Source: Parabacteroides gordonii MS-1 = DSM 23371
GTDB lineage: Bacteria; Bacteroidota; Bacteroidia; Bacteroidales; Tannerellaceae
DNA: 64,000 nucleotides
Assembly (NCBI RefSeq): GCF_000969825.1
Contig: NZ_KQ033919.1
Coordinates: forward strand, 114,030 to 178,029
Direction: 5' to 3'
Position numbers and translations under genes: made by a program. The notes below the pieces were generated by a model. It searched no databases and was not told the origin of the DNA. It saw only the letters and a program-made list of their open reading frames with translations. Numbering within the stretch: the first letter of the stretch is position 1; each line of letters begins with the position of its first letter. Below, piece after piece: positions 16,377 through 59,826 of this stretch.

Positions 16377-16590
16377 AATTTAACCTTTCTTTTTTTCCCT
16401 TTTTTCGGCCTGTTTGCGACCTTTGGGATTTATTTTCTGCCTCCAAAAGGTGGCGGAAACAATCTGACAAGGCTGATGCGGAAAAATACGCTCGACAGAC
16501 GGAGAGGAAGATTTTTACGGCTCACTCGCAGCGGAACGCCGGCATTGGCAAGATTGGAGCAGCCTATTACCTTTGCGGGAAAATAAGTCC
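16377..16590 (-). promoter_or_regulatory. Fold-back promoter module a (methylase-helicase)
   Basis: Arm A 16425-16479 is imperfectly complementary to arm B 16542-16590. Arm B contains TTGG (16545), a 20-nt spacer and TACCTTTG at 16568-16575, pointing away from the gene in duplex DNA but toward it if the plus strand folds back. A TTTCCC tract (GGGAAA in the mRNA) lies between arm A and the start codon. Confidence 0.7.
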
Positions 16591-16819
16591 ACGAGAGGTC
16601 GCACGGCAGCAGCAAAACGATAATAAATGACAATCAAATAGAAAGGGATGAATAAAACTGTAAAACAGGGGTGTTAAAACAGGGTAACGGACAATCGGAA
16701 CGGATTGCCCGTACTATAATCGGAGGAAGGTGAACTATAAAGGGAGGTGGAATCGGGTGGATTGGCCCATCTCTTGATAATTGCAGACTATTACTCTCAG
16801 AATGACGACTATATTAAAT
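16409..16819. repeat. Long direct repeat, copy 1
   Basis: About 410 nt, nearly identical to 19322-19719; the copies differ by a few substitutions, one extra T in copy 2 and a 14-nt deletion in copy 2. It contains fold-back module a and extends about 230 nt past its distal arm. Confidence 0.93.
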
Positions 16820-16884
16820 GTCGTAAAAAAATGCAACGGACTATTTTTTTTGTATCATGAGCGTATTATTCAGCAAATTAGTTG

Positions 16885-16892
16885 TATCTTTG
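16885..16892 (+). promoter_or_regulatory. -7 box for the toxin-antitoxin operon
   Basis: TATCTTTG, 22 nt before the ATG at 16915. Because the box sits here, a longer reading from a TTG at 16882 would begin inside the promoter, so ATG 16915 is the start. Confidence 0.75.
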
Positions 16893-16914
16893 TAATCGCA
16901 TAGATTTTTTTGAA

Positions 16915-17472
16915 ATGAAAACAGCTATACAGATTGCTAAAATAAGAGCAGTGGTACTCTACATCATGCAGAGTTTCACTCAAGGAGTGGACTATATAAA
17001 GTTATTTAAAATACTTTATTTTGCCCAACAGGACCATCTTGTCAAATATGGCAAAGTGATTGTCGAAGACTCTTTCAGAGCATTGAAGCATGGCCCGGTG
17101 CCAGCCTATACCTACAAGGCACTGCAAATTGCAGAAGGCAAACCCTTGGATGGGAATTTTGACGAGTTCCTTTCAGACATAGAGGTTCGTGACAAGAAGG
17201 TATATACTTCTGCCGTACCCGATATGGACTATATATCAGGTGCCAACAAACGTTGTCTTGACGCTGCTATCGCTAAATATAAGGATACAGACCCTTATGA
17301 CTTGTCCGATTTGTCGCATGACTCGGCATGGGAAGAAGCGATGACACGCATTCAGGATGATCCTCAAAAAAACTTCATTACCATTATAGATATAGCCCGG
17401 GCAGGAAAAGCTACCAAGGACATGGTAGATTATATCCGAGAAAAGCAGATTGTCAAGAACGCTTTATCTTAA
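16915..17472 (+). CDS. Panacea-domain (DUF4065/SocA-like) antitoxin
   Basis: 185 residues from the ATG after the -7 box. The Panacea pattern is clear: YIKLFKILYFAQQDHLVKYG, then EDSFRALKHGPVPAYTYKAL, the conserved K-L-x-K-x-L-Y-x-A and H-G-P-V-x-x-x-x-Y-x-x-L blocks. Panacea proteins act as antitoxins that neutralise many unrelated toxins encoded next to them. The next gene starts 5 nt later, a typical two-gene arrangement. The pair is flanked by the 0.4-kb repeats, so it may have been inserted into, or be deletable from, the element. The antitoxin role is inferred from family. Confidence 0.87.
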   Translation: MKTAIQIAKIRAVVLYIMQSFTQGVDYIKLFKILYFAQQDHLVKYGKVIVEDSFRALKHGPVPAYTYKALQIAEGKPLDGNFDEFLSDIEVRDKKVYTSAVPDMDYISGANKRCLDAAIAKYKDTDPYDLSDLSHDSAWEEAMTRIQDDPQKNFITIIDIARAGKATKDMVDYIREKQIVKNALS

Positions 17473-17477
17473 ATCAA

Positions 17478-17963
17478 ATGGACGACAAAACCGGTGCATT
17501 GGAAAAGCTGAAAGCTATAATGGCCAAAGCTGAGCAAGTAGATATGTCATCAGTCAAAATTGGTGACATTATTTATGTCCCCTTGGACGAAGAGGACGGA
17601 CTGATACTAAAAGACGGATATAAAGACCGCAATAAATATATTGTTATTATCGGCTTTACTCCGGAAGGTGTCGCTATCGGTGCTTTACTGATAAATTCGG
17701 AAATAGATTCTTCCAAGAGGTCGGAAGAGCTACTGGACTGCCAATATTCTTTGATGGTTCGGAACTATCGTGATATTCTGGACTATGACAGTTGGCTGGA
17801 TTGTTCCGATATATTCGAACTTTCAAAATTAAAAATCACGGAAAAGAACGGTAAACTGAAAGGTTGCCTGATTTCCGAAGACAGGGAACGGGTAATGCAG
17901 TTTCTAAGAGAGACAGAGGTGTTCGATAATGCAACTAAAAGACGTTATGGCATTATTAAATAA
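17478..17963 (+). CDS. Putative toxin partner of the Panacea antitoxin
   Basis: 161 residues, 5 nt after the Panacea gene. The first half has an SH3-barrel-like strand pattern (VKIGDIIYVPLDEEDGLIL, NKYIVIIGF, VAIGALLIN) reminiscent of PemK/MazF-type RNases, but I see no certain catalytic residue set. Residues 75-160 are mixed helix and strand with no recognised motif. The toxin assignment rests on position beside a Panacea gene; the MazF-like fold is a guess from pattern. Confidence 0.65.
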   Translation: MDDKTGALEKLKAIMAKAEQVDMSSVKIGDIIYVPLDEEDGLILKDGYKDRNKYIVIIGFTPEGVAIGALLINSEIDSSKRSEELLDCQYSLMVRNYRDILDYDSWLDCSDIFELSKLKITEKNGKLKGCLISEDRERVMQFLRETEVFDNATKRRYGIIK

Positions 17964-17982
17964 TGGCGTTAAATCATAGGGA

Positions 17983-19282: not shown

Positions 19283-19504
19283 AATGTTATTTTTTTATTG
19301 TTACTATTTCCCTTTGTTCAACCTGTTTGCGACCTTTGGGATTTATTTTTCTGCCTCCAAAAGGTGGCGGAAACAATCTGACAAGGCTGATGCGGAAAAA
19401 TACGCTTGACAGACGGAGAGGAAGATTTTTGCGGCTCACTCGCGGCGGAACGCCGGCATTAGCAAGATTGGAGCAGCCTATTACCTTTGCGGGAAAATAA
19501 GTCC
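19283..19504 (-). promoter_or_regulatory. Fold-back promoter module b
   Basis: Arm A 19338-19392 against arm B 19456-19504, with TACCTTTG at 19482-19489 in arm B. Nearly identical to module a; upstream of the 73-aa/190-aa gene pair. Confidence 0.68.
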
Positions 19505-19719
19505 ACGAGAGGTCGCACGGCAGCAGCAAAACGATAATAAATGACAATCAAATAGAAAGGGATGAATAAAACTGTAAAACAGGGGTGTTAAAACAGGGTA
19601 ACGGACAATCGGAACGAATTGCCCGTACTATAATCGGAGGAAGGTGAACTATAAAGGGAGGTGGAATCGGGTGGATTGGCCCATCTCTTGATAATTGCAG
19701 AATGACGACTGTATTAAAT
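19322..19719. repeat. Long direct repeat, copy 2
   Basis: Same orientation as 16409-16819 and over 95% identical by eye. Recombination between the copies would delete the toxin-antitoxin, YGS, 190-aa and 73-aa genes. Confidence 0.93.
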
Positions 19720-21466: not shown

Positions 21467-22033
21467 TTATTTCACTTTGTAATGGGTTCTTGCGAGGAAT
21501 ATACCTCCGAGTACATTAGCACCAAGGCTTTCAAGCTGATTGGCATAGGTAGCATAACTCAGCCCTTTGGTTATCACATCATCAAAGACTACCACAGACC
21601 TGCCGTTGAAAAAGGCCGAATCAAACTCAATGACGTTTACCTTACGGACTTCTTTCTCTGCCTTACGGTTTTCGTGAATGGTTAGCCTCTCACCACTCAC
21701 TGATACATGGTCATAACCATTGATAGCTCCCGTCAGTTCGCATACTCTTTGGCAGAATGCTTTGTAACGTATCTCGTTCTTCTTATCGGTGGATGCCGGT
21801 ACGGGAGAAAATACAATGTTAGTACATGATGTTCCATAACGTTCGGTCATGTTGGCTGCCGTGCGTTGAGCAACCTCTTCGTATGCCCGTCCATCCTTGA
21901 AATCAAAGACTAACTTGCGGTCTGCTATCTCACGCTCACTCACATTGCGTATGCGTGCAGGAAAATACTTACAGAACCATGCCTGTGGCTTGTCCAACTG
22001 TTTTTGAAGTTCTATGTCTATCGTCTTTGCCAT
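21467..22033 (-). CDS. Phosphoribosyltransferase-fold protein
   Basis: 188 residues. The PRPP-binding loop is SVVVFDDVITKG (about 145-156), preceded by FNGR and followed by YATYANQLESLGANVLGGIFLART, as in type I phosphoribosyltransferases such as ComF. The N-terminal part (WFCKYFPARI, ADRKLVFDFKDG) replaces the usual hood. It is the first gene of the operon with the SLOG gene and lies directly behind module c. A soluble cytoplasmic enzyme; the base or partner is not predictable. Confidence 0.85.
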   Translation of the reverse strand: MAKTIDIELQKQLDKPQAWFCKYFPARIRNVSEREIADRKLVFDFKDGRAYEEVAQRTAANMTERYGTSCTNIVFSPVPASTDKKNEIRYKAFCQRVCELTGAINGYDHVSVSGERLTIHENRKAEKEVRKVNVIEFDSAFFNGRSVVVFDDVITKGLSYATYANQLESLGANVLGGIFLARTHYKVK

Positions 22034-22243
22034 AACTCTGATAATTTTTCTTTTTCCCTCTTTTTGAAGGCTGTTCAGCCTGCTGAGGGATATTTTCTGC
22101 CATCAACTGCCGCCCAAGAATACCGATAAGACAAAACGGGGACAAGAAATACGCTCTGACGTGTCAGAGGAAGATTTTTCGTTCCAGCGATAGTGGCGAT
22201 TTGATGTTTGGTAAAAGGCGGCTTACTTTGCGGAAAATATGAC
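22034..22243 (-). promoter_or_regulatory. Fold-back promoter module c (PRTase-SLOG operon)
   Basis: Arm A about 22087-22135 against arm B about 22195-22243, with TTACTTTG at 22223-22230 in arm B. A GAAGGCTGTTCAGCCTGC hairpin and the TTTCCC tract lie next to the start codon. The -7 match and pairing are weaker than in modules a and d-h. Confidence 0.55.
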
Positions 22244-22379
22244 TACAGCAGAGCTAACCGACAAACAGAATATGCTTTCTTACTACAGGCGGTTGTCATA
22301 TAGACATGTAGAATAGGTGCAAGATTTATAAAAGGAATGGGTGGGCAGTGGAACGTCTGTGGCTTGCCGGTCCAAACTT

Positions 22380-23029: not shown

Positions 23030-23866
23030 ATGAATGCAAGACTATTGTTCATACTCCTGCTTTTCACAATTGGGGCATTGTGGTATATTATCGGCTACTG
23101 GCGACGAAAAGCAGGAGAAGCGGCATTCGCCGCCGCACGGTTGACCGAAAAGAGCGAGGAACGTGAACGTTACTGTCGTCTGGCGGTAATGGCCGGTCAT
23201 CGGGAAGCCTGCCGTATGTTCTGTCTCTTGCATCCCGAACGGTTTGATGGCCATTCTCCCCATAAGCCGTTCAAGTTACGAGGCATCCGAATCTCCTTTT
23301 ACGGATATTACTATCCGTCACGATACAATGCGCTGCTCAATGATGAACAGAGGGCTTTCTGCCATTCCATCTACCAGTTCAAACAAGGAGATATACACGG
23401 AATCGAGTTCTTTAAAACGTGTATGAATGCCTTGCAACTGAAAAAGAGACCTTACCATATAATGTTCATGCCGTGTAGCAACTGGATAAAATACGGTCAA
23501 CGGTTCAAACGGCTCGACTGGTACATCGGAAAGCACCGACAGGATTTAACTTCAGGACTGTACGACGTTGATATTTGCGATGCACGAGAAAGCCTGCATG
23601 AGGCCAAAGGTGGAGAGAAGCGTATCCTCGAACGAAACTACCTCATTACCGGAAAAATCAAAGGGAAAGAGATTATCATCATAGATGATGTGCTGACAAC
23701 CGGGCAAAGCGTGGTGGATTACAAGGAAGAGATAGAACGGTGCGGTGGCAAAGTAGTGGCGGCTATCTTCTATGGCAAGACGCTCTCCATGCCTTCGATG
23801 CTCCTTGTACAAATACACGTCTGGGGCAACCATATTGCCCATATTATTGAACGGATGACAAAGTAA
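23030..23866 (+). CDS. Membrane-anchored phosphoribosyltransferase-fold protein
   Basis: 278 residues. An N-terminal transmembrane segment (LLFILLLFTIGALWYIIGYW, residues 4-23) is followed by a positive stretch. The PRPP loop is IIIIDDVLTTGQSV (about 221-234) followed by GGKVVAAIFYGKT, a ComF-like arrangement. The middle (DGHSPHKPFKLRGIRISFYGYY) has no zinc-finger Cys cluster as real ComF would. It is divergent from the other PRTase and convergent with the LytM gene. Expected at the inner membrane with the catalytic domain in the cytoplasm. Function unknown; a link to DNA uptake or transfer is a guess. Confidence 0.8.
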   Translation: MNARLLFILLLFTIGALWYIIGYWRRKAGEAAFAAARLTEKSEERERYCRLAVMAGHREACRMFCLLHPERFDGHSPHKPFKLRGIRISFYGYYYPSRYNALLNDEQRAFCHSIYQFKQGDIHGIEFFKTCMNALQLKKRPYHIMFMPCSNWIKYGQRFKRLDWYIGKHRQDLTSGLYDVDICDARESLHEAKGGEKRILERNYLITGKIKGKEIIIIDDVLTTGQSVVDYKEEIERCGGKVVAAIFYGKTLSMPSMLLVQIHVWGNHIAHIIERMTK

Positions 23867-23898
23867 CCGGAACGTTTTCAGCCCTTTTCACTTCTCTT

Positions 23899-24558: not shown

Positions 24559-24615
24559 GGCAGCAAAGTTAGCACGCTCTTCTTATGGTCTGTCCATTGC
24601 CGACTGTTTTCTCTC

Positions 24616-24623
24616 CAAATATA
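24616..24623 (-). promoter_or_regulatory. -7 box for the LytM gene
   Basis: Minus-strand TATATTTG, about 58 nt before the start at 24558. Confidence 0.65.
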
Positions 24624-24636
24624 ACTATTTAATCAA

Positions 24637-24674
24637 TTTTGAATATGATTATTTGCGAAAAATCATATTCAAAA
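24637..24674. promoter_or_regulatory. 14-bp palindrome between divergent promoters (candidate operator)
   Basis: TTTTGAATATGATT (24637-24650), a 10-nt centre, then the exact complement (24661-24674). It lies between the -7 boxes of the LytM gene and of the 15-gene operon. The same half-site ATCATATT/AATATGAT recurs at 51662-51680. Confidence 0.7.
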
Positions 24675-24740
24675 CATTAAAAATACCACTTTATAATCAC
24701 TTATAAAGAAATGTTTTAGTCATCAGATAAGAAATCGCTC

Positions 24741-24748
24741 TATATTTG
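24741..24748 (+). promoter_or_regulatory. -7 box of the 15-gene operon
   Basis: TATATTTG, 32 nt before the ATG at 24780, with TTTTAG about 22 nt upstream. Confidence 0.72.
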
Positions 24749-41906: not shown

Positions 41907-42147
41907 TGCATTTATTTTTTTAAGTTGTTTTTTATTTCCCTCTTCTTGAAGCCTTCCGACTTTACCCAAGAGGTTGTTTCATGTGCATTTTCAACGGTGG
42001 ATGCAAGAACTATGAGCAAGTAACCGGAATGAAATTTTATGAATACCGGAATCTGTGATTGCGGAAGGTTACGTCAAATTTCATTTCAGGTAGCAACAGC
42101 GGTACTTGAACATCGTTTGCCACCGTACCTTCGCGCACGAAACAAAC
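41907..42147 (-). promoter_or_regulatory. Fold-back promoter module d
   Basis: Arm A 41973-42025 against arm B 42101-42147, with about 75-80% complementarity by eye. Arm B has TTG (42106), 17 nt, TACCTTCG (42126-42133). The stem is good on both sides of the -7 box and poor across it. A GAAGCCTTCC hairpin-like tract and TTTCCC lie near the start codon. Confidence 0.72.
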
Positions 42148-42291
42148 AATGGTACATGTCGGGACTGTAAGGATGTAATACAATTAGAACAGGGAATATG
42201 GAATAGGTAAAAGAGGCTATGAATTGGCAACAGAGGTTCGGCAGAACATGGTCTATAAAAGTAACCGGACTGTTATATAGGAAGATGATAA

Positions 42292-42823: not shown

Positions 42824-43070
42824 AATTTTGAAATTTAAATGATTAAACTTTATTCCCTTTACTTGAAGCTCTTCCGGCTTCTTGTCAGGAATGATTTTTA
42901 TGCGAAATTGACAGCAAGGAAAGGATGGATAAGGCAAGTAAACAGTGGATGGAATGAAGTGGAATACCCAAATCTTCGATATGCGGAAGGCTGCCACAAG
43001 TATCCGGGAACTGTTAGCGCAGCGTTACTTGACGACCATTCTAAAGCTGTATCTTTGCATACAAAATCTC
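42824..43070 (-). promoter_or_regulatory. Fold-back promoter module e
   Basis: Arm A 42893-42943 against arm B 43024-43070. Arm B has TTG (43029), exactly 18 nt, TATCTTTG (43050-43057). GAAGCTCTTCCGGCTTC hairpin beside TTCCC upstream of the ATG. Sequence beyond arm B to 43279 resembles that beyond module f and holds no gene. Confidence 0.75.
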
Positions 43071-43279
43071 TCAGATAAGAACTGCCGATGTGCGATATAA
43101 AGAATATCCGGATTGGAAGAATATAAAAGACTGGAGAAGCACTCTGAGACTGTATAAAAGGACTGAAGGCGACAAAGTCTCCCCAATCTGCATGGCAAAT
43201 CAGAGAAGCTTATCGGATAATGATAGTTCGCTGCACGCTGTCAGCATACCGTCATTTCGTTTTCTGCATCGGATTAGTC

Positions 43280-44282: not shown

Positions 44283-44585
44283 ATTCTTTGATTTATTATT
44301 TCCCTTTGCTTGAAGCTCTTTCAGCTTCTTGCCGGGGATTGATTTTTATGCAGGATTAACAGTGGAATAAGGGCGATAAGACAAGTAAACAGTAAATGGA
44401 ATGGAACGGAATACCCAACCTTCGAATGTAAGAGCAGAAGCAGGCTTGTCCTTTTATACCTTGCAATGAGAAGGGGACTGAAAGTCAATCTTTGATTTGA
44501 GGAAGGCTGCCGTAAAATATCCAGGAACCGTTAGCATAGCGGTGCTTGACAATCGTCCGGACACTGTACCTTTGCATATAAAATC
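44283..44585 (-). promoter_or_regulatory. Fold-back promoter module f
   Basis: Arm A 44342-44391 against arm B 44541-44585. Arm B has TTG (44546), exactly 18 nt, TACCTTTG (44567-44574). Pairing flanks the -7 box and fails across it. GAAGCTCTTTCAGCTTC hairpin next to TTTCCC near the start. Confidence 0.75.
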
Positions 44586-46550: not shown

Positions 46551-48008
46551 TTACCGTTTAGATTTCTTGCCGATAGTCGAGCGCATCATGCGGCTCGCCA
46601 TCCTCATACAGCGAAGTGCCCATGCTCGGTTGTCCTCGTCCTCGTCGCGTCCCCATTTGAGGTCACTCCCTCCGCCTCCACCACCATGTGATTCGGCAAA
46701 TGTAGTGGCATCATCTACCATTCCGAGAAATAGCATTGTCGCACAGTGCATGATTTCCGTACCCCGCTCGGCGATAGACTGTACCAGTGAACCGTCAAAG
46801 AGCTGCCGTTCTGAAACATTCATTTGTGCCGATGCGTTACGATACTCGCTGATTACACTCTCCAGTAGGACGTCTTTAAACAAGCTATCCACTTTGGAGT
46901 GTACATCACGGGAATATTGATAGGCCTCCTCTTTGAGTTCTTCGGTACGTTCTTCAATGGCTCCCATATCCTTTTTCAGTTCGATGAGTTGCCGGTCAGC
47001 CGTCTGCAACTTTTCCTGCTTGTCTGCCAGTTGTCTGATGATTCCTTGCAGCTCTTTTTCCAACATTTGTATTTGGATTGCCAATTCTGCCGCATTGCCT
47101 TTGTTTTCTTTTAAATTGTACTCGGCTGCCGATAACAAGGTTTCTTTTTCAGTTTTCTGCTTTTCAAGATTGCTAACCATTGTCGTAAGCCCTTTGACTC
47201 TGCGTTCTGCCAACCGGATGTCTGATTGAAGTTCACCCAATACCTGTTGATGGAGTTTGATATTATCCTCGATTGTTGTACACTCTTCAGACAACATTCG
47301 GCGGTATTCCTCAGTCGTTCTGTGCCGTGCACCCGTTTCGGATATGCTTGTTCCTCTTGACATTCCCCACTTTGTATTGACTTCTGCGAAAAAGTCCGTA
47401 TGAAGTTGTTTCATTCTTGCACTATATTCAAACTTATCCTTACCGGCGAAGATTTCCTTGTACGCAAAGCGACTATCCTTGATTGGCAGAAGCGTACAGT
47501 GGATATGCGGGTTCAATTCATCCAGATGTACAATGAATGCAGCGATGTTCTGCTCACCATATCTGCCACAAACGAATGAATAAACATCCTTGGCCCAGCG
47601 TTCAATGTCACGCTTCCGTTCGATGCGGGTATTGTCCGCACCTTTTTCAAAGTCCACCTGTTGCGTACCGAAAGCAAGTTCCTGCATTCGCTGCCGTGAA
47701 CCGCCGAAGATGATATTTACCACCGTGCGGTATTTTGGTTCGAGCAGCCCCTCATTAGGATCTTTGATTCCACGGTGACTTAATATGTCCGCCATCCGTT
47801 TGGGAATGCTACGGCTTGTGTCGATGGGATGTATTTTACCTCCGGGCGCAATCTCGAAGTTCAGCCGTTTACGCGTAGGATCATAATTTCCCTTACTCAT
47901 AGCGTACTTCTCTGCCTTTTCACTACGGTCACGCAGATGTTCATTACTTTGGGCGGTGGTAATCCCTTTCGACACCTGCACGTCGAGTACCTGTTTTTGA
48001 TTTGCCAT
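46551..48008 (-). CDS. MobV-type relaxase
   Basis: 485 residues, start at 48008 (MANQKQVLDVQVSKG). The catalytic motif FIVHLDELNPHIHCTLLPI near 165-183 is the H-x-D-E-x-x-P-H-x-H signature of MobV/Mob_Pre relaxases. A coiled-coil stretch of about 150 residues follows (LEKQKTEKETLL, LEKELQGIIRQLADKQEKLQ) and a Gly-rich HGGGGGGS turn near the end. The enzyme nicks oriT and stays bound to the transferred strand. The next gene upstream lies 207 nt away, across a GC-rich inverted-repeat region that may be the oriT. Confidence 0.92.
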   Translation of the reverse strand: MANQKQVLDVQVSKGITTAQSNEHLRDRSEKAEKYAMSKGNYDPTRKRLNFEIAPGGKIHPIDTSRSIPKRMADILSHRGIKDPNEGLLEPKYRTVVNIIFGGSRQRMQELAFGTQQVDFEKGADNTRIERKRDIERWAKDVYSFVCGRYGEQNIAAFIVHLDELNPHIHCTLLPIKDSRFAYKEIFAGKDKFEYSARMKQLHTDFFAEVNTKWGMSRGTSISETGARHRTTEEYRRMLSEECTTIEDNIKLHQQVLGELQSDIRLAERRVKGLTTMVSNLEKQKTEKETLLSAAEYNLKENKGNAAELAIQIQMLEKELQGIIRQLADKQEKLQTADRQLIELKKDMGAIEERTEELKEEAYQYSRDVHSKVDSLFKDVLLESVISEYRNASAQMNVSERQLFDGSLVQSIAERGTEIMHCATMLFLGMVDDATTFAESHGGGGGGSDLKWGRDEDEDNRAWALRCMRMASRMMRSTIGKKSKR

Positions 48009-52646: not shown

Positions 52647-52820
52647 GCCAGCCAAGGGATGGGTAAATACGGTCAAAAAAGACTGGTTCAAGAGGCGTGA
52701 AATTGTAAAAAGGAAGTGGAATGGAATAAATATAAACGGAGCTTCCGGCAACAGGAGTCCAGGATATATCGGTTGAGATATACCCTGAATACATGTCGGA
52801 TATTGTCTGTCCGGAGATGT

Positions 52821-53501
52821 TTAGGCTTTCCACCTATACCCCTCGTTTGTCAGTTCCAAGTATTCCTCTAATCCCGGTTTTACGAAAAAGACAATTTCAA
52901 AGGCATCGTTACTTCCGCTATCGGGGAATGTCATGTCGGTTTCTCCATTTCGGATAGTCCCTTTGCCCACGTTGGAACCAAGGTCTTCATCCGCATAGGC
53001 ATATTGAAACTCGACGTCCGGAAATATTTCGGAGAGTGTTTGGATAAGCAGCGGCACACCTTCCCAAGCCGTATCAAACCAAAGCACGTTCGGTTCTTCA
53101 AAATTCTGATTAAAGGCATTCCATTTTGTACCCCAGTTAGCGATAGACCATTCATACCAAGTAGGATAACCGTATTTTCCCCAGTTTTTCAGATATGTCA
53201 TTCCAAGTTGTAATGCTTCTTCCCTGACTTTTTCCTCCTGAATTTCCATCCATTGAATGACTTTCAGGTCGTCCTGTGAATTGAACGGTTTACGTTGCTG
53301 TGCTATGATATACTGCATACCAAATTCCCCAGAAGTGGACGCTTCTATCAGTAAGTCCTTTGGCATAGGGATAATGTTGTTGAAGTCAATATAGCAAGGC
53401 GTACTGTCTTCATCTGTTTTTCCTTTTAAGAAATCCATCACATTTTGTACTGTTTCTCTGTCTGCGTTTATTTCTAAACGGTTTGTTACATAATTAGGCA
53501 T
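52821..53501 (-). CDS. DUF1281/Api92-like ferredoxin-fold protein
   Basis: 226 residues. Family pattern: MPNYVTNRLEINADRETVQNVMDFLKG at the start, then IDFNNIIPMPKDL, WCxxNWGTKWNA-like WSIANWGTKWNAFNQNFE, LWFDTAWEGVPLLIQTLSEIFPDVEFQYAYADEDLG. These proteins occur on plasmids, phages and conjugative elements and are of unknown function. Behind fold-back module m. A shorter relative begins the 59297 gene (MANYATNIFHA). Confidence 0.87.
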   Translation of the reverse strand: MPNYVTNRLEINADRETVQNVMDFLKGKTDEDSTPCYIDFNNIIPMPKDLLIEASTSGEFGMQYIIAQQRKPFNSQDDLKVIQWMEIQEEKVREEALQLGMTYLKNWGKYGYPTWYEWSIANWGTKWNAFNQNFEEPNVLWFDTAWEGVPLLIQTLSEIFPDVEFQYAYADEDLGSNVGKGTIRNGETDMTFPDSGSNDAFEIVFFVKPGLEEYLELTNEGYRWKA

Positions 53502-53741
53502 GATTTTAATGTTTAAAGAATTGGTTAGTATTAACTTTTATTTCCCATATTGTCGGTTCTTTACTGATTGAACCGTTTTGGGATTTATGGATGCGGTAAA
53601 CGGATGTCGATACAGCTTCATACGGCAACTTTTCTTGCCAAATTACTCTTGCGCAGGAAGGAAGAATTTTGTAAGAAATACACTTCAAGTAGCAGGATCA
53701 AGCGCGATAGCCGACCTTTGCATCTGATAAAACCAAACCGG
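53502..53741 (-). promoter_or_regulatory. Fold-back promoter module m (DUF1281 gene)
   Basis: Arm A about 53573-53622 against arm B about 53689-53741, with GACCTTTG at 53713-53720. The -7 box departs from consensus at the first base and the -33 TTG is not clear, so this copy is weaker. Confidence 0.5.
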
Positions 53742-53925
53742 TGATAGGATGAAGAATAGATGGGAGATAAAATGAAAAATAATTAATATAAAAGAAGAAT
53801 GCTATTCCTTTTGCAGAAATATAAAAAAGGAATAGAATGATATAATTATAAAAGAGGGATTATTATTACCCTCTCAATTATAAGAGGGTATGTTCTCAAA
53901 CTCCGACCCTTATTTGTAATACTGT

Positions 53926-53969
53926 AATACCGCAACACCTCCGTTAAAGGTCATTACGGTATTTTTTTT
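53926..53969. terminator. Terminator near the 3' end of the LPD11 gene
   Basis: AATACCG / CGGTATT arms with a 24-nt loop and a run of eight T on the plus strand. The A/T-rich repeats CCCTC/GAGGG at about 53853-53887 lie beside it. Confidence 0.6.
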
Positions 53970-53972
53970 GAA

Positions 53973-54227
53973 TTATTCTTGTGTTACTCCCATAGCATTG
54001 CTGTATTCTTTGATTTGCTCCATTGTCAGCCATTCGGGTTTTTCGTTTTCTCGGAAGCTGTCGTGAATTTTCGTCATGTATTCAATTTGTGTCTTTTCAG
54101 AACCAGCCCACAAACGACGAGAACTTTTGTTTCCAAAGCCAAGATAATATTCACAGTCGGCTTGCAAACGACCCAATAACATATATCTGAATTTTAAATC
54201 GTGCTGTAATACTTCTTCTATTGTCAT
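53973..54227 (-). CDS. LPD11-like small protein (84 aa)
   Basis: Pattern FRYMLLGRLQADCEYYLGFGNKSSRRLWAGSEKTQIEYM, then EKPEWLTMEQIKEYSNAMG, as in the LPD11 domain (large polyvalent protein-associated domain 11) found in phage and conjugative-element proteins. It stands alone here rather than in a polyvalent protein. Behind fold-back module g, in one transcription unit. Possibly injected or early-acting, by family habit; the function is unknown. Confidence 0.82.
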   Translation of the reverse strand: MTIEEVLQHDLKFRYMLLGRLQADCEYYLGFGNKSSRRLWAGSEKTQIEYMTKIHDSFRENEKPEWLTMEQIKEYSNAMGVTQE

Positions 54228-54472
54228 ACTCGTTTTCGTTTTTAATTAAGTTTTTTATTTTCCCTTTTTTCAAGTCTTTCGACTTTGCCGGAAGGGTTGT
54301 TTTTCATGTGCGTCCCAAACGACGAAGCAGGAACGCAGTGCAAGGAATCGGAAATGAAATTTTATGAATACCGAAATCTATGATTTAGGAAGATTACGTC
54401 AAATTTCATTTCGGATAGCGTAGCGATACTTGGATAGCGTTCGTTCGCCGTAATTTTGCACACGAAAACAAG
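54228..54472 (-). promoter_or_regulatory. Fold-back promoter module g
   Basis: Arm A 54296-54350 against arm B 54424-54472, one of the best matched pairs. Arm B has TTG (54430), exactly 18 nt, TAATTTTG (54451-54458). CAAGTCTTTCGACTTTG hairpin and TTTTCCC near the start. The stretch to 54718 holds no gene; a GATACC/GGTATC hairpin lies at about 54645-54680. Confidence 0.75.
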
Positions 54473-54718
54473 ACCGGGCGAAAGTCTGGATAACGACAGG
54501 AAACATCAACATTCATTACATAAGGGCTGTAAAAGAGAAGCAGGCAGTTACGCTGCTATAAAAGGGAAACAAGGAAATTAAAAAAGTGGGCACGGAGCAA
54601 TCTGTAAAAAAGGGGGGATGCCACCTGTCTTCGGGCAAAAGAAGATACCATACCGATAGGATTTAACCGATACGGTATCTCTTTGGTAGTCATCAGTACC
54701 ATACTTTCAGAAAACCAT

Positions 54719-55219
54719 TTAAAAACATTCGATATTCGCCTCTTGGAAAATCTGCGGGGCGTGCTGATAAAGCAAAGGAAGATTCAATACCGCCATTGGA
54801 TATTCCACAAATCCGCTTCTACGCTTGTAACCTGAATAGGTCGCTAAATTATTTGTCTCCAGAAACTCCATTGCATCCGGATAATGATTCACATCAATAA
54901 ATGTACGGTCTGGCAAATCGAGTGCATCCATGCTCTCCAAATTGACGGATAGCACGATATACTCTGTTTCATCTTCCACACTTTGCAAAGTAAGTGCTAA
55001 CCAGCCATTGCCATAAAATTGAGGCATGAGATAAAAGCGTTCTCCACGAAACTCGTATTCTTTCCGCGTTAGGGAGCTGTCCGGATCTACCAAGCGAAAA
55101 TCATCCTCTCCAGAAACAAATTCTGTTGATGGGTCACTGACATCCACATACGTTCCATTTACATTGTGACACAAATACTCTGCATTTTCTGAACGAACAA
55201 TCACAAATTGAATTTCCAT
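54719..55219 (-). CDS. Acidic hypothetical cargo protein (166 aa)
   Basis: Beta-rich and acidic: VIVRSENAEYLCHNVNGTYVDV, EDDFRLVDPDSSLTRKEYEFRGERFYLMP, ALTLQSVEDETEYIVLSVNLE. No membrane or signal segment. Behind module h. Could be a DNA mimic judging from acidity, but that is a guess; no family recognised. Confidence 0.68.
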   Translation of the reverse strand: MEIQFVIVRSENAEYLCHNVNGTYVDVSDPSTEFVSGEDDFRLVDPDSSLTRKEYEFRGERFYLMPQFYGNGWLALTLQSVEDETEYIVLSVNLESMDALDLPDRTFIDVNHYPDAMEFLETNNLATYSGYKRRSGFVEYPMAVLNLPLLYQHAPQIFQEANIECF

Positions 55220-55500
55220 ACTTTTAAAATTTAGCTATTAAACATCATGTTCTTTTTTTCCCTTTTTTCGGAAGCTTTTAGGCTTCTCCAGTCGGGATTT
55301 GATTTTTACGTGCATTCAAGATTGCCTTTAAGGAAAAGCAGGCAAGGAATTTGGACAGAATTTTTACAGTTGCGGTATGGAGCGTATACGACATTTGAGC
55401 GATTGAAAATCGGGAAAGCTACTGAAAAATTGTGTTCAAATAGCGTAGCGGTACTTGAATGTTTTTCCGTGGCAATACCTTTGCACAGGAAAAAACAAGT
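55220..55500 (-). promoter_or_regulatory. Fold-back promoter module h
   Basis: Arm A about 55301-55346 against arm B about 55449-55500. Arm B has TTG (55455), exactly 18 nt, TACCTTTG (55476-55483). GAAGCTTTTAGGCTTC hairpin and TTTCCC near the start. Confidence 0.72.
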
Positions 55501-55637
55501 CCTGACTGGTAGCAGCCTGAAACGAAATAATTTCGTTTTATACAAGGGTAAAACGGAGTGATAAAAAAGGGAATGACCACAAAGAGCAGCCGACAAAAGC
55601 CGGCTTTCTTTTGTTCCTGTGGGAGGAGCTGGGACAT

Positions 55638-55952
55638 TTAATCCGTTACATCATAATAATAGCTTAGCTCGTCATCTTCCAGATACTCCATTGCATATTG
55701 ACTGGCTTGTGCCCAAAGGGTATTATACAATGTCGCAATTTCCGGCCTTGTTTCATAATACTGCCATATCTTATGGTTAAGCACTAAAACCAGTTCCGTG
55801 AGATACTTGTAGTTCTCTTTCCACTCCTTAAAAGCACGGTTGAAAGTGTCCTGTATCGCCGAAAGACCAAATCGGTCAGCAATGGAAAAATCATTCCAAA
55901 AGGTTGTTTGCAATTCATAACCGTTCTCTAACATAAATTCTCTGAATGTCAT
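55638..55952 (-). CDS. Small acidic hypothetical cargo protein (104 aa)
   Basis: Helical: MTFREFMLENGYELQTTFWNDFSIADRFG, then FKEWKENYKYLTELVLVLNHKIWQYYETRPEIATLYNTLW and a final acidic DDELSYYYDVTD. It resembles small proteins common on Bacteroidales conjugative elements; no named family. Behind module i. Confidence 0.7.
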   Translation of the reverse strand: MTFREFMLENGYELQTTFWNDFSIADRFGLSAIQDTFNRAFKEWKENYKYLTELVLVLNHKIWQYYETRPEIATLYNTLWAQASQYAMEYLEDDELSYYYDVTD

Positions 55953-56177
55953 AATGCCTCAAATTTTAAGATTAATATTTTATTTATTTCCCTTCGATAC
56001 TTCCTGTACCGAAAGGTTGATTATTTTTCTGCCCACGGGATTGGCGGCCAGAACGGGCAAGGAGGATGCGGAAAATACACTCTTCGATATTTCGGAGAGG
56101 AAGATTTTACAGCAGCAAGTGTCAGCGGTCCTTGACAGGACGGACAGCCGGCAATCGAATTTTGCAGGGAAATAACC
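55953..56177 (-). promoter_or_regulatory. Fold-back promoter module i
   Basis: Arm A 56018-56069 against arm B 56125-56177, long well matched flanks (TTATTTTTCTGC and GGCCAG). The -7 region reads GAATTTTG (56157-56164), one base off consensus, and the TTG (56132) is 22 nt away, so the box is weaker than the stem. Confidence 0.6.
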
Positions 56178-56416
56178 AGGCTTGCGGGATAGAAATATAG
56201 GGGGTAGCTGGATGGGGCTATAAAGGAGGGCCGGAGTCTAAAAAAGGAAACTGGCACAAGCGGCCACCTACAACAGTTGGGCGGGAACATTCATAAATGT
56301 GTAAAAAGGAATAGTTTCCCACCACATTTTATGCAGAATATATACGGCATAAAACACAAGTGCGTAACAGCCTCTTGAGAAAGCGTTACGGCATTTGTTT
56401 AAGTACAGGTTACAGG

Positions 56417-56944
56417 CTATTTTACCTGAACGAGGTTGTCCTGTAGAGTTTTCCAGCCATACACTGCGGCCACATAGGGGTGGAGGGAACGTGTAACTTG
56501 GCGAAAACCATTCTCGTCAATTTCATAGTTGTAGATTTTTGCGGCAATCTGTTCTGCGTCGTCACGATTTTCAGCGACACGGTACAAAACATAATTCGTG
56601 CCATCATGGTGCGACATACGGCCTCGTATATCGTAGCCGTCACCGTACCACTCTGCATCATACTGGGTAGATTGTAATATCCCGGCAATGTTGTCACCCA
56701 AAATTTGATAGCCTTGTTTGCGTCCGTTCCACAATCCTAAATCTCCAAATGCAATAATGACTCCATTGACATCCTTGTTTAGGTTCTGCCGCTCATCCCC
56801 CAATTCATTATACACTTCGTCCGACCACTCTTCATCGCTGACCTTGTAGGCATCATCGTCCAGTTCTTCTCGCTTGAAATTTTGATAATACTCTCTTGCT
56901 GTTTCATCCAATAGAGCATCACTTGACCAAATTATTTGTTTCAT
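56417..56944 (-). CDS. Strongly acidic hypothetical cargo protein (175 aa)
   Basis: Very acidic: FKREELDDDAYKVSDEEWSDEVYNELGDE, then VIIAFGDLGLWNGRKQGYQIL and AEWYGDGYDIRGRMSHHDGTNYVLYRV. The I-A-F-G-D-L-G-x-W-N-G-R segment recurs in small proteins of phages and conjugative elements. The acid-rich surface fits a DNA-mimic antirestriction role, which is inference. Behind module j. Confidence 0.72.
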   Translation of the reverse strand: MKQIIWSSDALLDETAREYYQNFKREELDDDAYKVSDEEWSDEVYNELGDERQNLNKDVNGVIIAFGDLGLWNGRKQGYQILGDNIAGILQSTQYDAEWYGDGYDIRGRMSHHDGTNYVLYRVAENRDDAEQIAAKIYNYEIDENGFRQVTRSLHPYVAAVYGWKTLQDNLVQVK

Positions 56945-57150
56945 ACATTCTAATTTTTTATTTTCCCTTCCCTTCAGAGGCTTTTACCTCGTCCGGTGGG
57001 ATTTGATTTTACGTGCAAACCACAAGGCGGAAGAAGGGAACAATGCAAGGAGGAAGCGGAATCCGAAGGATTTCATTTGAACGGCATTGACTGCAAATGA
57101 AACGCGCCTTGCAGGTTCACGTCCGACTTAACTTCGCACTGTAAAATTAA
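56945..57150 (-). promoter_or_regulatory. Fold-back promoter module j
   Basis: Arm A 57001-57050 against arm B 57106-57150, well paired (TTTTACGTGC, GGGAAC, TGCAAGG). Arm B has TTG (57109), 17 nt, TAACTTCG (57129-57136). An extra perfect hairpin TTTCATTTG/CAAATGAAA sits in the loop. The stretch to 57431 holds no gene. Confidence 0.72.
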
Positions 57151-57431
57151 TGGACGGCGGACGTAACCTCACTTTTGGGAAGAAATATGGTTATAAGAGG
57201 GACTGGAAAGCTGCTCAGAGGTATGGAATTGAGAGAGTCTTCTTTTTTCTATTGAAAATCGTAATCTGCCTGTTCATCAAGTGGAGCTAAGTATAACAGT
57301 ATTACCGGGTGAAGATTTCATTTGGAGCTTGGCATCGCAACAGTCACTTATAAAAGTATGATGCGTATTAATCCGGTCATGAGCAAAACAAAAGCGACCA
57401 AAAGATCGCTTTGTTCATGATAAGGCAAGAA

Positions 57432-57812
57432 TTATTTTTTGCCTTTTTTCACGGGCTTTACCGGCTTTTCAGGAACATCCTCCTTTTCGATAGGAGGATA
57501 AAACTTGACAGCCACCATAACAACACGATTGTGCTTCACACCGACCTTGTCGGTCCACTCTTCAGGCTTAAAGTAGCCTTCAATGGTGAGCATCGTACCT
57601 TTGGTCAGTTGGTCGAATGACCCAGTATTCTCGTTTTTACGCCAAGCCTCAATATTCATAAAGGCTGAAATGCGGTTGGTTTCCTCGGCATTCCTTTCCT
57701 GACGGCTTACGGCCAATGGGAAACGTGCGACACTGCTGTTGGTGAACTCTCGGATTTCAGCGTCTTTACCTAAGAATCCGGTTACTGTGAAATTGTTTTC
57801 AATCTTTTTCAT
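57432..57812 (-). CDS. ssb: Single-strand DNA-binding protein SSB
   Basis: 126 residues, one OB fold: ENNFTVTGFLGKDAEIREFTNSSVARFPLAVSR, ISAFMNIEAWRKNEN, TKGTMLTIEGYFKPEEWTDKVGVKHNRVVMVAVKFYPP. The C-terminus is basic (VKPVKKGKK), not the acidic DDDIPF tail of housekeeping SSB. Plasmid ssb genes are typical of leading regions, where they blunt the SOS response in the recipient. Behind module k. Confidence 0.9.
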   Translation of the reverse strand: MKKIENNFTVTGFLGKDAEIREFTNSSVARFPLAVSRQERNAEETNRISAFMNIEAWRKNENTGSFDQLTKGTMLTIEGYFKPEEWTDKVGVKHNRVVMVAVKFYPPIEKEDVPEKPVKPVKKGKK

Positions 57813-58029
57813 GTTGAATTGCTTTTAGAAGTTATTAAATCAATTTTTACACTGCCTAAAAAGTAGATGTCGTTTAAGGGATGCACCAAGGATAGCGCGT
57901 CAATACGCTTTATTTTTAGCCACAGGTAAAATCGAAGGCTCGATAAAGGAAGATTGAAGCGGCTACGCCATTGGTCAAGACAACCATGTCGTTCCCGTCG
58001 GCATACTATCTTTGCAGAGGAAAAATGAT
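57813..58029 (-). promoter_or_regulatory. Fold-back promoter module k (ssb)
   Basis: Arm A 57839-57891 against arm B 57968-58029. TATCTTTG at 58007-58014 but no clear TTG at the expected distance. Pairing is moderate. From 58030 to 58509 I see no gene, only Lys-codon-rich shadow reading frames. Confidence 0.52.
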
Positions 58030-58509
58030 GATTGCTTCGATAAAAAGCGATTATGGAAAATGGGAAACAAGTAAACCGGTAATGATAAGGAAAAAGAGCA
58101 AATCCAAATGTCGGCACAAAGGCGAGACATCCGTCCGAAAGTCAGTGAAGAATAGCAAAGCCAAAGCGAGACATGCCTGGCTTGAATTGAGACTGTAACA
58201 AACAGAATACCATCCAATCAGAAAAAAGGCCACTGCATAAGGAATGTGTCAGCCAAGAGTGGACAGAAGCGTAGGTAGCCCATCCTTGGAGGATAGTGAT
58301 ATCCGCATCGAAAAAAAATGGAACTGGAAGGAAAAACGGCAGGAAGAACCAGACTTTTCACAAAGTGGTTTCCAATTCGCTTTGTGCGAATGGCTGGTTT
58401 CTACAAAAGGGAGTGGCGCAGCCAAAAGAAAAAGTTATAAAAGGAAAATGGAAGTAAGGCTGAAATGGGTGATTCCATTCCAGCCAGTCGATGATATTTG
58501 TCCAAGGTG

Positions 58510-58770
58510 TCATTGAAATTCAACCATCATAATACGATGCTCGAATATTTTGGTTTTGTCGCTGGGACGTCGCTGGCAAACCCAAAGGTGTCGTGCACCG
58601 TAACCGTATGTGAAATATTCATCAAGTGGAGTTTTTTTCTCCAACTGTCTCATGCTTTCACGCAATTCCGCCTCATTGCCAGAAAAAAGAATCGTGTTAA
58701 TGATTCGGAAATAAAGTTCAGTTACCTCGTCACAATAGGGGCAAAAGCTGTGTTCAATTGTTACTTTCAT
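58510..58770 (-). CDS. Small hypothetical protein with CPxC motif (86 aa)
   Basis: Starts MKVTIEHSFCPYCDEVTELYFRI; the CPYC pair suggests a metal site or redox pair. Rich in Glu and Arg; YGYGARHLWVCQRRPSD near the end adds a third Cys. 14 nt from the upstream gene; likely last of the 59599-to-58510 set. Confidence 0.65.
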   Translation of the reverse strand: MKVTIEHSFCPYCDEVTELYFRIINTILFSGNEAELRESMRQLEKKTPLDEYFTYGYGARHLWVCQRRPSDKTKIFEHRIMMVEFQ

Positions 58771-58784
58771 GCTTCTTTTGATTT

Positions 58785-59114
58785 TTATTGTACTTCGATT
58801 ATATCTTCAATTCGACCATATAGGACAGAACGTAGTGCGGTTTTGTCAATGGCATAATATTCGGCAATATGTCCATGTTGTTTCACGAAATACCGTTTGA
58901 GAACATCGGAGAAGTCAAAACGGTAGCCCATTAAAGCGATACCTCTTTTGAAATGGCAGCACTCTTTCACATTGCGGGTGAGCCAGTTCTTTTCTTCCCG
59001 ACTCAACTTGTCGCCATTATCAAGACGTTCCCGTAATTTGTAAACCTTGCTATCTTTCAGTTTTTCCAATTCGGGCACATCCCATTGGACGAATTTCATT
59101 GCTATCTGTGTCAT
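58785..59114 (-). CDS. Hypothetical cargo protein (109 aa)
   Basis: MTQIAMKFVQWDVPELEKLKDSKVYKLRERLDNGDKLSREEKNWLTRNVKEC, then FKRGIALMGYRFDFSDVLKRYFVKQHGHIAEYYAIDKTALR: a mostly helical basic protein of a kind common on Bacteroidales conjugative elements. A later ATG (MKFVQWDVP) is possible. Unknown function. Confidence 0.72.
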   Translation of the reverse strand: MTQIAMKFVQWDVPELEKLKDSKVYKLRERLDNGDKLSREEKNWLTRNVKECCHFKRGIALMGYRFDFSDVLKRYFVKQHGHIAEYYAIDKTALRSVLYGRIEDIIEVQ

Positions 59115-59141
59115 GGTTTCTATGTTGTAAAATTGTAAAAA

Positions 59142-59273
59142 TTACTTCATCACAGTATTTAATACTCTCTCTTTGCCACAGATGAAACGAACAGTGATTT
59201 TGTTGTCGAAATCACCGACAATCGTTCCATCCGTGTGTCTCTTATAGAATAAGCAAAGTGTAGGATAGACCAT
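59142..59273 (-). CDS. Small hypothetical protein (43 aa)
   Basis: MVYPTLCLFYKRHTDGTIVG, then DFDNKITVRFICGKERVLNTVMK. Lies between 59297 and 58785 on the same strand, 23 and 27 nt from its neighbours, with strand-like alternation. Too short for certainty. Confidence 0.5.
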   Translation of the reverse strand: MVYPTLCLFYKRHTDGTIVGDFDNKITVRFICGKERVLNTVMK

Positions 59274-59296
59274 AATTTTACTTTATCTTCTTCTAC

Positions 59297-59599
59297 TCAT
59301 TCAGTTACTAATTTGACCTTCCATTCTCCCTGAGAGAATATTCTAAAGCTCACGTACTCGTCTTCAAATTCATAGGTTAGAATCTTGATATAGACTTTAT
59401 CTTTGTCCTCCAACGATTCTACCAATTTTTTGATTTCTTCTTCTGGATACACCCAACGAGAGGAAAATTCTGCATCTACACTATCACCATATCGATTGGT
59501 AAATTCGCTGAAAGTGTCATCCAAGAAAGCCTCTATTTTGTCGAGGTCTGTTTTATTTTCCGTTCTTGCGTGGAAAATGTTGGTTGCATAATTTGCCAT
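59297..59599 (-). CDS. DUF1281-related short protein (100 aa)
   Basis: Start at 59599 (MANYATNIFHARTENKTDLDKIEAFLDDTFSEF). It shares the M-x-N-Y-x-T-N start with the DUF1281 protein at 52821, then a charged middle (WVYPEEEIKKLVESLEDKDKVYIKILTYEFEDEYVSFRIF). Probably a short form of the same fold. First gene behind module l. Confidence 0.72.
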   Translation of the reverse strand: MANYATNIFHARTENKTDLDKIEAFLDDTFSEFTNRYGDSVDAEFSSRWVYPEEEIKKLVESLEDKDKVYIKILTYEFEDEYVSFRIFSQGEWKVKLVTE

Positions 59600-59826
59600 A
59601 AATACCAAGTTTTAAGTTTGTTACTTTCCCTCCTGTAGCATTTCACTTACTTTCGGGCTTGATTGAAATTATGTCGCTTCAACAGGTGGCATGGCTATGT
59701 ATGCAGGGTTTCACTACAAAATACTACCTCTGCGAAGCGGAGCGTGGAGATTTTGTAGTGAACCTTCAGGTTACAACCTTGCATACAATAAAGACATGGC
59801 AAATACCTTTGCGACACAATTCCCAT
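59600..59826 (-). promoter_or_regulatory. Fold-back promoter module l
   Basis: Arm A 59661-59710 against arm B 59775-59826, long matches at ATTATGTCGC, GGCATGG and TGTATGCAGGGTT. Arm B has TACCTTTG at 59804-59811. The loop carries an additional perfect 13-bp hairpin (59710-59722 with 59750-59762) with an inner CTCTGC-gaa-GCGGAG. Confidence 0.7.

What the first reader, a model, noticed from the sequence alone, without database searches (positions are those of the whole stretch)
16377..59826. Thirteen fold-back promoters that aim at their genes only when the plus strand is single-stranded: candidate Bacteroidales ssDNA promoters
Each of 13 minus-strand genes or operons (methylase 16377, 73-aa gene 19283, PRTase-SLOG 22034, 41907, 42824, 44283, DUF1281 53502, LPD11 54228, 55220, 55953, 56945, ssb 57813, 59600) is preceded by two imperfectly complementary arms of about 50 nt. 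Arm B holds a Bacteroidales promoter (TTG, 17-20 nt, TANCTTTGC in the best copies) that points away from the gene in duplex DNA. If the plus strand folds on itself, arm B is the non-template and arm A the template strand, and RNA polymerase would run into the gene. Pairing is good on either side of the -7 box and poor across it in most copies, like a premelted -10. This is the arrangement of Frpo/ssi promoters of F-like plasmids, which express ssb and antirestriction genes from the incoming strand. I know of no described Bacteroidales example. Seen: arms, boxes, strand bias. Inferred: ssDNA activity.
Basis: partly seen in the sequence, partly recalled or inferred. Interest (0 to 1): 0.95.

Follow-up and report, generated by a model that had tools for sequence, protein, structure and literature searches.

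The report
Bacteroidales promoters for incoming single-stranded DNA
A mobile element of gut Bacteroidales carries 13 DNA fold-backs, one before each of 13 genes or operons including its single-strand-binding protein gene, and each is predicted to work as a promoter only while the incoming DNA strand is still single, which would switch these genes on as soon as the element enters a new cell.

Summary
The window is part of a T6SS-carrying conjugative element. All 13 modules exist, with arms matching over 42-93 positions. Arm B carries a Bacteroidetes -7 box pointing away from the gene; a TAnnTTTG facing the gene in duplex occurs in 0 of 13 regions. Arms match their own partner far better than other modules' partners. 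Before ssb the module recurs in 66 of 67 Bacteroidales loci on a combined fold-and-box score, in 56 on fold alone. In 22 orthologues of the 59600 module 15 of 44 pairs show double compensatory changes. G.T mismatches exceed A.C in plus orientation (42:16), so the plus strand seems to be the one that folds; this weakens after strict de-redundancy. An oriT-like hairpin and core next to the MobV gene point to plus as the transferred strand, with seven modules 5-12 kb behind it, though a mirror control is not clean. I read these as single-strand promoters, working like Frpo but unrelated in sequence and using another sigma factor's boxes. My searches showed no described Bacteroidales example.

The parts
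16378..16639 (+). fold-back module before the methylase-helicase gene; -7 box TACCTTTGC at 16568
   Evidence: arms 74/113 matches; z -1.0
19293..19552 (+). fold-back module before the DUF7688 gene; box TACCTTTGC at 19482 (near-copy of the 16377 module)
   Evidence: arms 70/110; z -1.9
22059..22269 (+). fold-back module before gene 21467-22033 (no Pfam family) and the SLOG gene behind it; box TTACTTTGC at 22223
   Evidence: arms 42/60; z -2.0; Pfam
41936..42196 (+). fold-back module before gene 41712-41906; box TACCTTCGC at 42126
   Evidence: arms 90/149; z -3.9
42851..43106 (+). fold-back module before the gene starting at 42823; box TATCTTTGC at 43050
   Evidence: arms 63/96; z -1.8
44343..44582 (+). 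fold-back module before gene 43812-44282; box TACCTTTGC at 44567 (weakest arms)
   Evidence: arms 61/104, score 29; z -0.7
53520..53787 (+). fold-back module before the DUF1281_C gene; box GACCTTTGC at 53713
   Evidence: arms 92/146; z -4.0
54243..54518 (+). fold-back module before the LPD11 gene; box TAATTTTGC at 54451
   Evidence: arms 93/151; z -3.0
55280..55518 (+). fold-back module before the DUF4313 gene; box TACCTTTGC at 55476
   Evidence: arms 74/108; z -8.0
55990..56202 (+). fold-back module before gene 55638-55952; box GAATTTTGC at 56157
   Evidence: arms 71/118; z -4.0
56959..57187 (+). fold-back module before gene 56417-56944; box TAACTTCGC at 57129
   Evidence: arms 73/124; z -4.3
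57817..58052 (+). fold-back module before ssb; box TATCTTTGC at 58007
   Evidence: arms 79/128; recurs in 66 of 67 relatives on combined score, 56 of 67 on fold alone; z -4.8
59627..59862 (+). fold-back module before gene 59297-59599; box TACCTTTGC at 59804
   Evidence: arms 86/134; 22 orthologues with covariation; z -7.8
57432..57812 (-). ssb gene of the predicted leading region
   Evidence: Pfam SSB
46551..48008 (-). MobV-family relaxase gene
   Evidence: Mob_Pre; same length as the annotated mobV of NZ_OY725765.1
48073..48110 (+). candidate oriT: inverted repeat CCCACC/GGTGGG, then G|TATTAGGC (predicted nick at or near 48096/48097), then the CCCCC arm of a second inverted repeat
   Evidence: repeat arms differ in relatives, core kept; mirror control
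12339..16376 (-). N6-methylase/SNF2 helicase gene (mhgA-like) behind the 16377 module
   Evidence: MhgA description in passages of PMC8102008

Best explanation
Each module is most likely a single-strand promoter: when the plus strand is alone, arm B is predicted to pair with arm A, so the TAnnTTTG box on arm B would sit in a duplex-like hairpin, and RNA polymerase carrying the Bacteroidetes primary sigma factor would start there and run along arm A into the gene. Shown: matching, co-varying arms; a -7 box on arm B and no gene-directed TAnnTTTG in the duplex; one prevailing polarity; recurrence before ssb across Bacteroidales; an oriT-like hairpin and core beside the relaxase gene. Inferred: that plus is the transferred strand, that the fold forms in the recipient, that polymerase starts there, and that conversion to duplex shuts the promoter off because the same box then points away from the gene. 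The result would be early, short-lived expression of ssb, a parB-like protein, a methylase and small unknown (perhaps anti-defence) proteins. The lost pairing at the TA end of the box would help melting.
For: Arm matching specific to each module. Compensatory double changes in 14 of 38 pairs of an RNAalifold structure and 15 of 44 of a DNA-parameter structure, where 97.0% of cells pair against 35-48% when slid and 0 of 500 shuffles reach any of five measures (the structure came from these sequences). Recurrence before ssb: 66 of 67 on combined score, fold alone at least 2 sd above shuffles in 56 of 67 and in 30 of 36 representatives. Polarity: 39 further modules same, 3 opposite, in 36 representative loci, 0 in shuffles (some of the 39 may be near neighbours or orthologues). 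Folding strand: G.T 42, A.C 16 in 12 window modules (between-module control 171:148); 259:138 in 108 modules (control 1231:1097). Plus fold more stable than minus in 12 of 13. Gene-directed TAnnTTTG in 0 of 13 window modules and 4 of 108 (8.0 expected), box exact in 73 of 108. oriT-like site 88-89 nt before mobV in 12 of 12 ssb loci that hold it, 5.1-9.9 kb from ssb, same polarity. Box 185-212 nt before 50 of 74 predicted starts. On F plasmid the same alignment step finds long fold-backs before ssb and another gene (boxes there not checked). Consensus TAnnTTTG from passages of PMC7366714.
Against: No transcript, nick or binding data. Five of 13 modules fold weakly alone. Exact TAnnTTTG in only 8 of 13 boxes, TTG at 17-20 nt in 8 of 13. 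Fold alone is within 1 sd of shuffles in 4 of 67 ssb loci (L022, L023, L033, L062). Among 108 modules, which were chosen for high own scores, own arm B ranks first in only 50 (within the first five in 97). The G.T excess falls to 131:82 (p 0.04) and 121:71 (p 0.02) with 62 and 53 modules. A stem of 5 or more also lies 3' of the core in 8 of 20 oriT-like sites. In pMV158 the nicked strand is the relaxase gene's coding strand, and in L087 the site lies in that orientation too. Modules at 41.9-44.3 kb would enter last and those at 16-22 kb late. The ArdC-like operon at 23-41 kb lies on the other strand without modules at the genes tested.
Confidence: 0.76

Rival explanations
1. The fold-backs are single-strand initiation sites: polymerase makes only a short primer RNA on the folded transferred strand, to start complementary-strand synthesis at many points, and gene expression is secondary.
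For: Same folded strand and same boxes would serve; Frpo was itself described for both uses (title of Masai and Arai 1997 in reference lists seen).
Against: Modules sit at a narrow distance before start codons (50 of 74 at 185-212 nt), which priming would not need.
Confidence: 0.07
2. The module is an RNA leader: a promoter further upstream on the minus strand makes an mRNA whose long 5' region folds and regulates translation or termination.
For: Arms co-vary as in a structured RNA, and arm A contains a small conserved CCC-stem-GGG hairpin.
Against: The minus strand, not the plus, would then tolerate G-U pairs; the observed excess is the other way. The conserved -7 box lies on the wrong strand for it. 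No Rfam family matches the modules.
Confidence: 0.04
3. Arm B is an ordinary duplex promoter for a rightward small RNA, and the arms are a decayed inverted duplication or an operator.
For: The boxes match the duplex promoter consensus of the phylum.
Against: Co-varying arms over about 100 nt, narrow distance to the gene behind, and polarity tied to the oriT-like site have no role in this reading.
Confidence: 0.05
4. The minus strand is the transferred one, as in pMV158 where the cleaved strand is the relaxase gene's coding strand, so the modules are not on the incoming strand.
For: pMV158 nicks the coding strand upstream of mobM and the relaxase gene here is on minus; a second stem lies 3' of the core in 8 of 20 sites.
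Against: In 18 of 20 sites a stem of 5-9 stands 5' of the core, 4 and 0 in the other two under this strict rule, in the order of pMV158 IR1/IR3, nick, IR2; the site search itself asked for a 5' stem, but the printout did not. The folding strand is plus.
Confidence: 0.08

Closest known systems
Frpo1/Frpo2 of F plasmid and the single-strand promoter of ColIb-P9
   Same: Fold-back on the transferred strand that rebuilds promoter boxes, before ssb and other early genes of the leading region (passages of PMC9849209); the same script finds long fold-backs there (boxes on F not checked).
   Different: No sequence similarity beyond chance (E 0.41); boxes of the Bacteroidetes primary sigma factor instead of -35/-10; 13 modules in the window and two in its flank against the two Frpo described for F in the passages seen; integrated element instead of plasmid.
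Leading-region anti-defence islands with Frpo-like candidates (PMC11541004, passages seen)
   Same: ssb, methyltransferase and small genes on one strand near oriT.
   Different: That work searched known Frpo sequences and the E. coli -35/-10 consensus, and its main text does not contain 'bacteroid', so this class would likely be missed.
oriT of pMV158 (MOBV)
   Same: Inverted repeat 5' of the nick core, second repeat around it, sharing one arm (passages of PMC5863519).
   Different: Other sequence; relaxase gene on the other side of the core in the window and most relatives, though not in L087.
GA1 T6SS elements of gut Bacteroidales (PMC8102008, passages seen)
   Same: T6SS, conjugation genes, tyrosine integrase, methylase-helicase gene.
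   Different: That paper's main text has no 'oriT' and no 'promoter'. Class assignment of this element is likely, not proven.

Membership tests
Single-strand promoters of conjugative elements (functional class) | stem-loop on one strand that brings promoter boxes into a paired helix and points at the gene only when folded | tested here: met
   (five of 13 fold weakly alone)
Single-strand promoters of conjugative elements (functional class) | lies in the leading region with the transferred strand as template of the gene | tested here: inconclusive
   fits for 7 of 13 modules if the oriT-like site is the nick; 3 would enter last and 3 late; nick not mapped
Single-strand promoters of conjugative elements (functional class) | transcription from single-stranded but not double-stranded template | not testable with these tools
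   needs in vitro transcription
Single-strand promoters of conjugative elements (functional class) | early transient expression in recipients | not testable with these tools
   needs a mating time course
Frpo/ssi sequence family | sequence similarity to Frpo | tested here: not met
   blastn of the F ssb fold-back against 13 modules: two chance-level hits, E 0.41
Frpo/ssi sequence family | sigma-70 boxes TTGACA and TATAAT | tested here: not met
   the conserved box is TANCTTTGC and no TTGACA consensus shows upstream of it (108 modules; modules were chosen by a TANCTTTGC score)
MOBV oriT | inverted repeat immediately 5' of the nick on the cleaved strand, second repeat around it | tested here: inconclusive
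   arrangement present and conserved, mirror control not clean; cleavage not shown
Rfam structured RNA | match to a curated family | tested here: not met
   only group II intron parts in the window at gathering level; in 52800-60200 one sub-threshold match, E 0.083

The most novel reading that the evidence does not exclude
Bacteroidales elements evolved, independently of Frpo, a class of single-strand promoters for their own sigma factor and gave a dozen or more establishment genes a private copy each, so that one incoming strand fires them all; a conserved apical motif (AAATAC..GGAGATTT) would be a site read only in the folded strand.
Probability: 0.62. Interest if true: 0.92.

Novelty: new variant of a known kind. 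Interest (0 to 1): 0.87.

Why it matters
Single-strand promoters with experimental support are, as far as I recall and saw, from enterobacterial plasmids. A second class across Bacteroidales, unrelated in sequence and built for a different sigma factor, would show that expressing establishment genes from the incoming strand is a general solution of conjugation, would mark many unknown small genes of gut elements as candidates for anti-defence work, and could help explain how large elements such as the T6SS-carrying ones spread through gut communities. It gives a search signature (fold-back with TANCTTTGC about 200 nt before a start codon) and a ready test.

Tried and rejected
A lax scan (box score 6, fold 26) of the 164 kb stretch gave 200 plus and 213 minus candidates against 249-299 in all in shuffles and did not discriminate; only strict thresholds do. 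A search for direct repeats of 14 bases or more marking the element's ends found none, so the ends are not mapped. The LPD11 family search in 123 genomes matched 5 and was not used further. A DNA pattern from the 59600 module found nothing in the own genome. The inverted repeat at 51.5-51.8 kb, between divergent genes, scores well but looks like an A+T-rich divergent promoter region, not a module. Prevotella plasmid pE2-28 gave only A+T-rich candidates. PADLOC hits of module genes are mainly methyltransferase and helicase domains and say little. Invertible promoter was rejected: the arms are imperfect and the box lies inside an arm.

Rows dropped: L018 and L070 (short upstream); L062; L040 from the ssb counts; opposite-polarity and weak-box candidates (146 to 108), so says nothing on polarity; 45 of 74 downstream frames were given. 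Of 29 rows I set nine aside by eye as chance (L066, L075, L084, L016, L061, L088, L101 and two of L116). Control genes were picked by hand (22 plus, 8 minus).
Full report
Setting. The window lies at C1:114030-178029 of a 6.79 Mb genome. With flanks it shows one mobile element of perhaps 115-120 kb whose ends are not mapped: two tyrosine integrases at -57.5 and -56.3 kb in window coordinates and tra genes on plus from -50 to -31 kb (TraG P-loop, TraM, DUF4138, coupling protein), parB- and parA-like genes and a second ssb on minus, T6SS-type genes on plus (a weak TssF match below its cut-off, a ClpB-type ATPase, a VgrG-type hub) followed by an RHS-repeat protein, a methylase-helicase on minus, an operon with two ArdC-like proteins and a toprim protein on plus, a MobV relaxase with accessory genes on minus, and small genes with ssb on minus up to about 60 kb. 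This fits the GA1 class of PMC8102008, of which I saw abstract and passages; the assignment is likely, not proven.

The observation. All 13 modules are present. Own arms match with a mean score of 36.0, foreign arms with 18.8 (sd 3.7); 11 of 13 rank their own partner first. The strict scan of the window gives 17 plus hits, the 13 and 4 others, against 4 minus hits. The same fold-back stands before a parB-like gene and the second ssb outside the window. A gene-directed TAnnTTTG occurs in 0 of 13 module regions; in 108 modules it occurs in 4, with 8.0 expected from shuffles, while the box on arm B is exact in 73. The consensus TAnnTTTG is from passages of PMC7366714.

Conservation. A scan for relatives of the window's ssb gave 69 loci in Bacteroides, Phocaeicola, Parabacteroides, Prevotella, Barnesiella, Duncaniella and other, mostly Bacteroidales, records. 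Of 67 with enough upstream DNA, 66 carry the module with at most 1 of 40 shuffles reaching the combined fold-and-box score. On fold alone 56 of 67 lie 2 sd or more above shuffles, 7 between 1 and 2 sd, and 4 below 1 sd (L022, L023, L033, L062); in 61 of 67 the box is 189-206 nt from the start. Many of the 67 are near-identical: at 95% identity 36 representatives remain besides the window, of which 30 reach 2 sd. Beyond the ssb module these 36 loci hold 39 further strict modules of the same polarity and 3 of the opposite, none in shuffled loci. For 74 predicted frames behind modules, 50 start 185-212 nt from the box. In 45 of those frames 14 Pfam families were found, among them SSB (4), DUF1281_C (4), N6 methylase (3), PcfK, RadC and DUF4313 (1 each).

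Covariation. Twenty-two orthologues of the 59600 module were aligned. RNAalifold gives 38 pairs, 14 with double compensatory changes. On a structure from DNA parameters 97.0% of cells pair, 15 of 44 pairs have a double change, 77 cells have one, and 0 of 500 shuffles reach any measure; sliding the partner drops pairing to 35-48%. The structure derives from these sequences, which favours it over slid versions. Among 108 modules, chosen for high own scores, own arms score 48.7 and foreign ones 22.9 on average; own ranks first in 50 and within five in 97.

Which strand folds. In a folded strand G.T is tolerated more than A.C. In plus orientation 12 distinct window modules show 42 G.T and 16 A.C, between-module pairs 171 and 148. 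In 108 modules it is 259 to 138 against 1231 to 1097, and 227 to 121 against 1033 to 953 with the box left out. With de-redundancy the excess stays but weakens: 204 to 113 (86 modules, p 2e-5), 131 to 82 (62, p 0.04), 121 to 71 (53, p 0.02). Plus folds are more stable than minus in 12 of 13 window modules. This speaks against an mRNA leader, which would fold from the other strand.

Shape. Around the box, pairing is lowest at and just before TA (0.56-0.58, with one similar low at position 13, 0.51), 0.94 at the GC end and 0.89-0.96 at positions 14-17. In the structure of the 22 orthologues TA lies in a bulge between two helices. An apical motif, AAATAC..ACC and GTGGAGATTT, is nearly invariant there; ssb modules have AATACTCTTT and GGAAGATT in one subgroup.

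Which strand is transferred. Upstream of mobV the plus strand reads inverted repeat CCCACC/GGTGGG, then G|TATTAGGC, then a C-rich arm complementary to GGGG. In relatives the repeat is CCTC/GAGG, CTTTGT/ACAAAG, CCCTC/GAGGG, CCTTC/GAAGG, CCCTGC/GCAGGG or others, while the core stays. A repeat directly 5' of the nick, overlapping a second repeat around it, is the order described for pMV158 (passages of PMC5863519); that hairpins lie 5' of the nick in other relaxase systems is recalled. This makes plus the transferred strand and puts seven modules (53.5-59.8 kb) 5-12 kb behind the nick. In 12 of 12 ssb loci that hold the site (L018-L022, L025, L043-L048; fewer independent types) it lies 88-89 nt before mobV and 5.1-9.9 kb from ssb with the same polarity. 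Against this: in a mirror test a stem of 5-9 stands 5' of the core in 18 of 20 sites, but one of 5-6 also 3' of it in 8 of 20 (L022, L086 and the six near-identical L043-L048); the site search itself asked for a 5' stem; in pMV158, and in L087, the core lies on the relaxase gene's coding strand; the modules at 41.9-44.3 kb would enter last; the nick is not mapped.

Comparison. On F plasmid the same alignment step finds fold-backs of score 95 before ssb and before another gene, 73 and 49 before two more, and 22 and 30 before two others; similarity to the modules is at chance level. I did not check promoter boxes on F. PMC9849209 (passages) reports that Frpo1 and Frpo2 are needed for early expression and that conversion to duplex turns it off. 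So the modules would work like Frpo but are not members of its sequence family. Of ten paper searches, seven bear on novelty; their listings showed no single-strand promoter described for Bacteroidales; the library lacks most subscription journals. [quoted passage not shown] fragilis ArdA protein, but the passages seen show no Bacteroides promoter. Two Frpo surveys (PMC11541004, PMC12826799; passages seen) do not contain 'bacteroid' in the main text.

Verdict. A widespread structured DNA element with strong covariation, narrow placing and strand polarity; single-strand promoter is the best reading at 0.76. The missing steps are a transcription assay and a mapped nick.

Noticed in passing
window 9897-12300: A group II intron (Rfam hits 9897-9973 and 12161-12300, maturase ORF 10015-11682) lies at the 3' side of the methylase-helicase gene, which reads 1345 aa against 1659 reported for MhgA; the gene is probably interrupted.
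   Followed up: partly
arm A of several modules, e.g. 59627-59680: Small conserved hairpin CCC..stem..GGG just upstream of the start codon, nearly invariant in 22 orthologues (columns 26-55); it would lie in the mRNA leader and competes with the long fold.
   Followed up: no
module apex, e.g. around 59720-59760 and 57910-57960: Nearly invariant apical motif AAATAC..GTGGAGATTT (ssb type AATACTCTTT..GGAAGATT), possibly a protein site or non-standard DNA fold.
   Followed up: no
window 16377-16780 and 19283-19700: Two near-identical modules with their flanks, a recent duplication.
   Followed up: no
window 41900-44600: Three modules lie on the trailing side of the predicted nick and would enter last, which early expression does not explain.
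   Followed up: no
L056:6264 and 19569: Modules of opposite polarity to the ssb module of the same locus, perhaps a second element or an inversion.
   Followed up: no
L087:3763: The oriT-like core lies on the coding strand of the MobV-like gene, as in pMV158, about 790 nt upstream of it.
   Followed up: no
C1 flank, window coordinates about -27.8 and -24.2 kb: Modules of the same class before a parB-like gene and a second ssb gene outside the window.
   Followed up: partly
window 23030-40986: Plus-strand operon with two ArdC-like proteins, toprim and a glucosaminidase/M23 peptidase, without modules at the genes tested and not templated by the predicted transferred strand.
   Followed up: no
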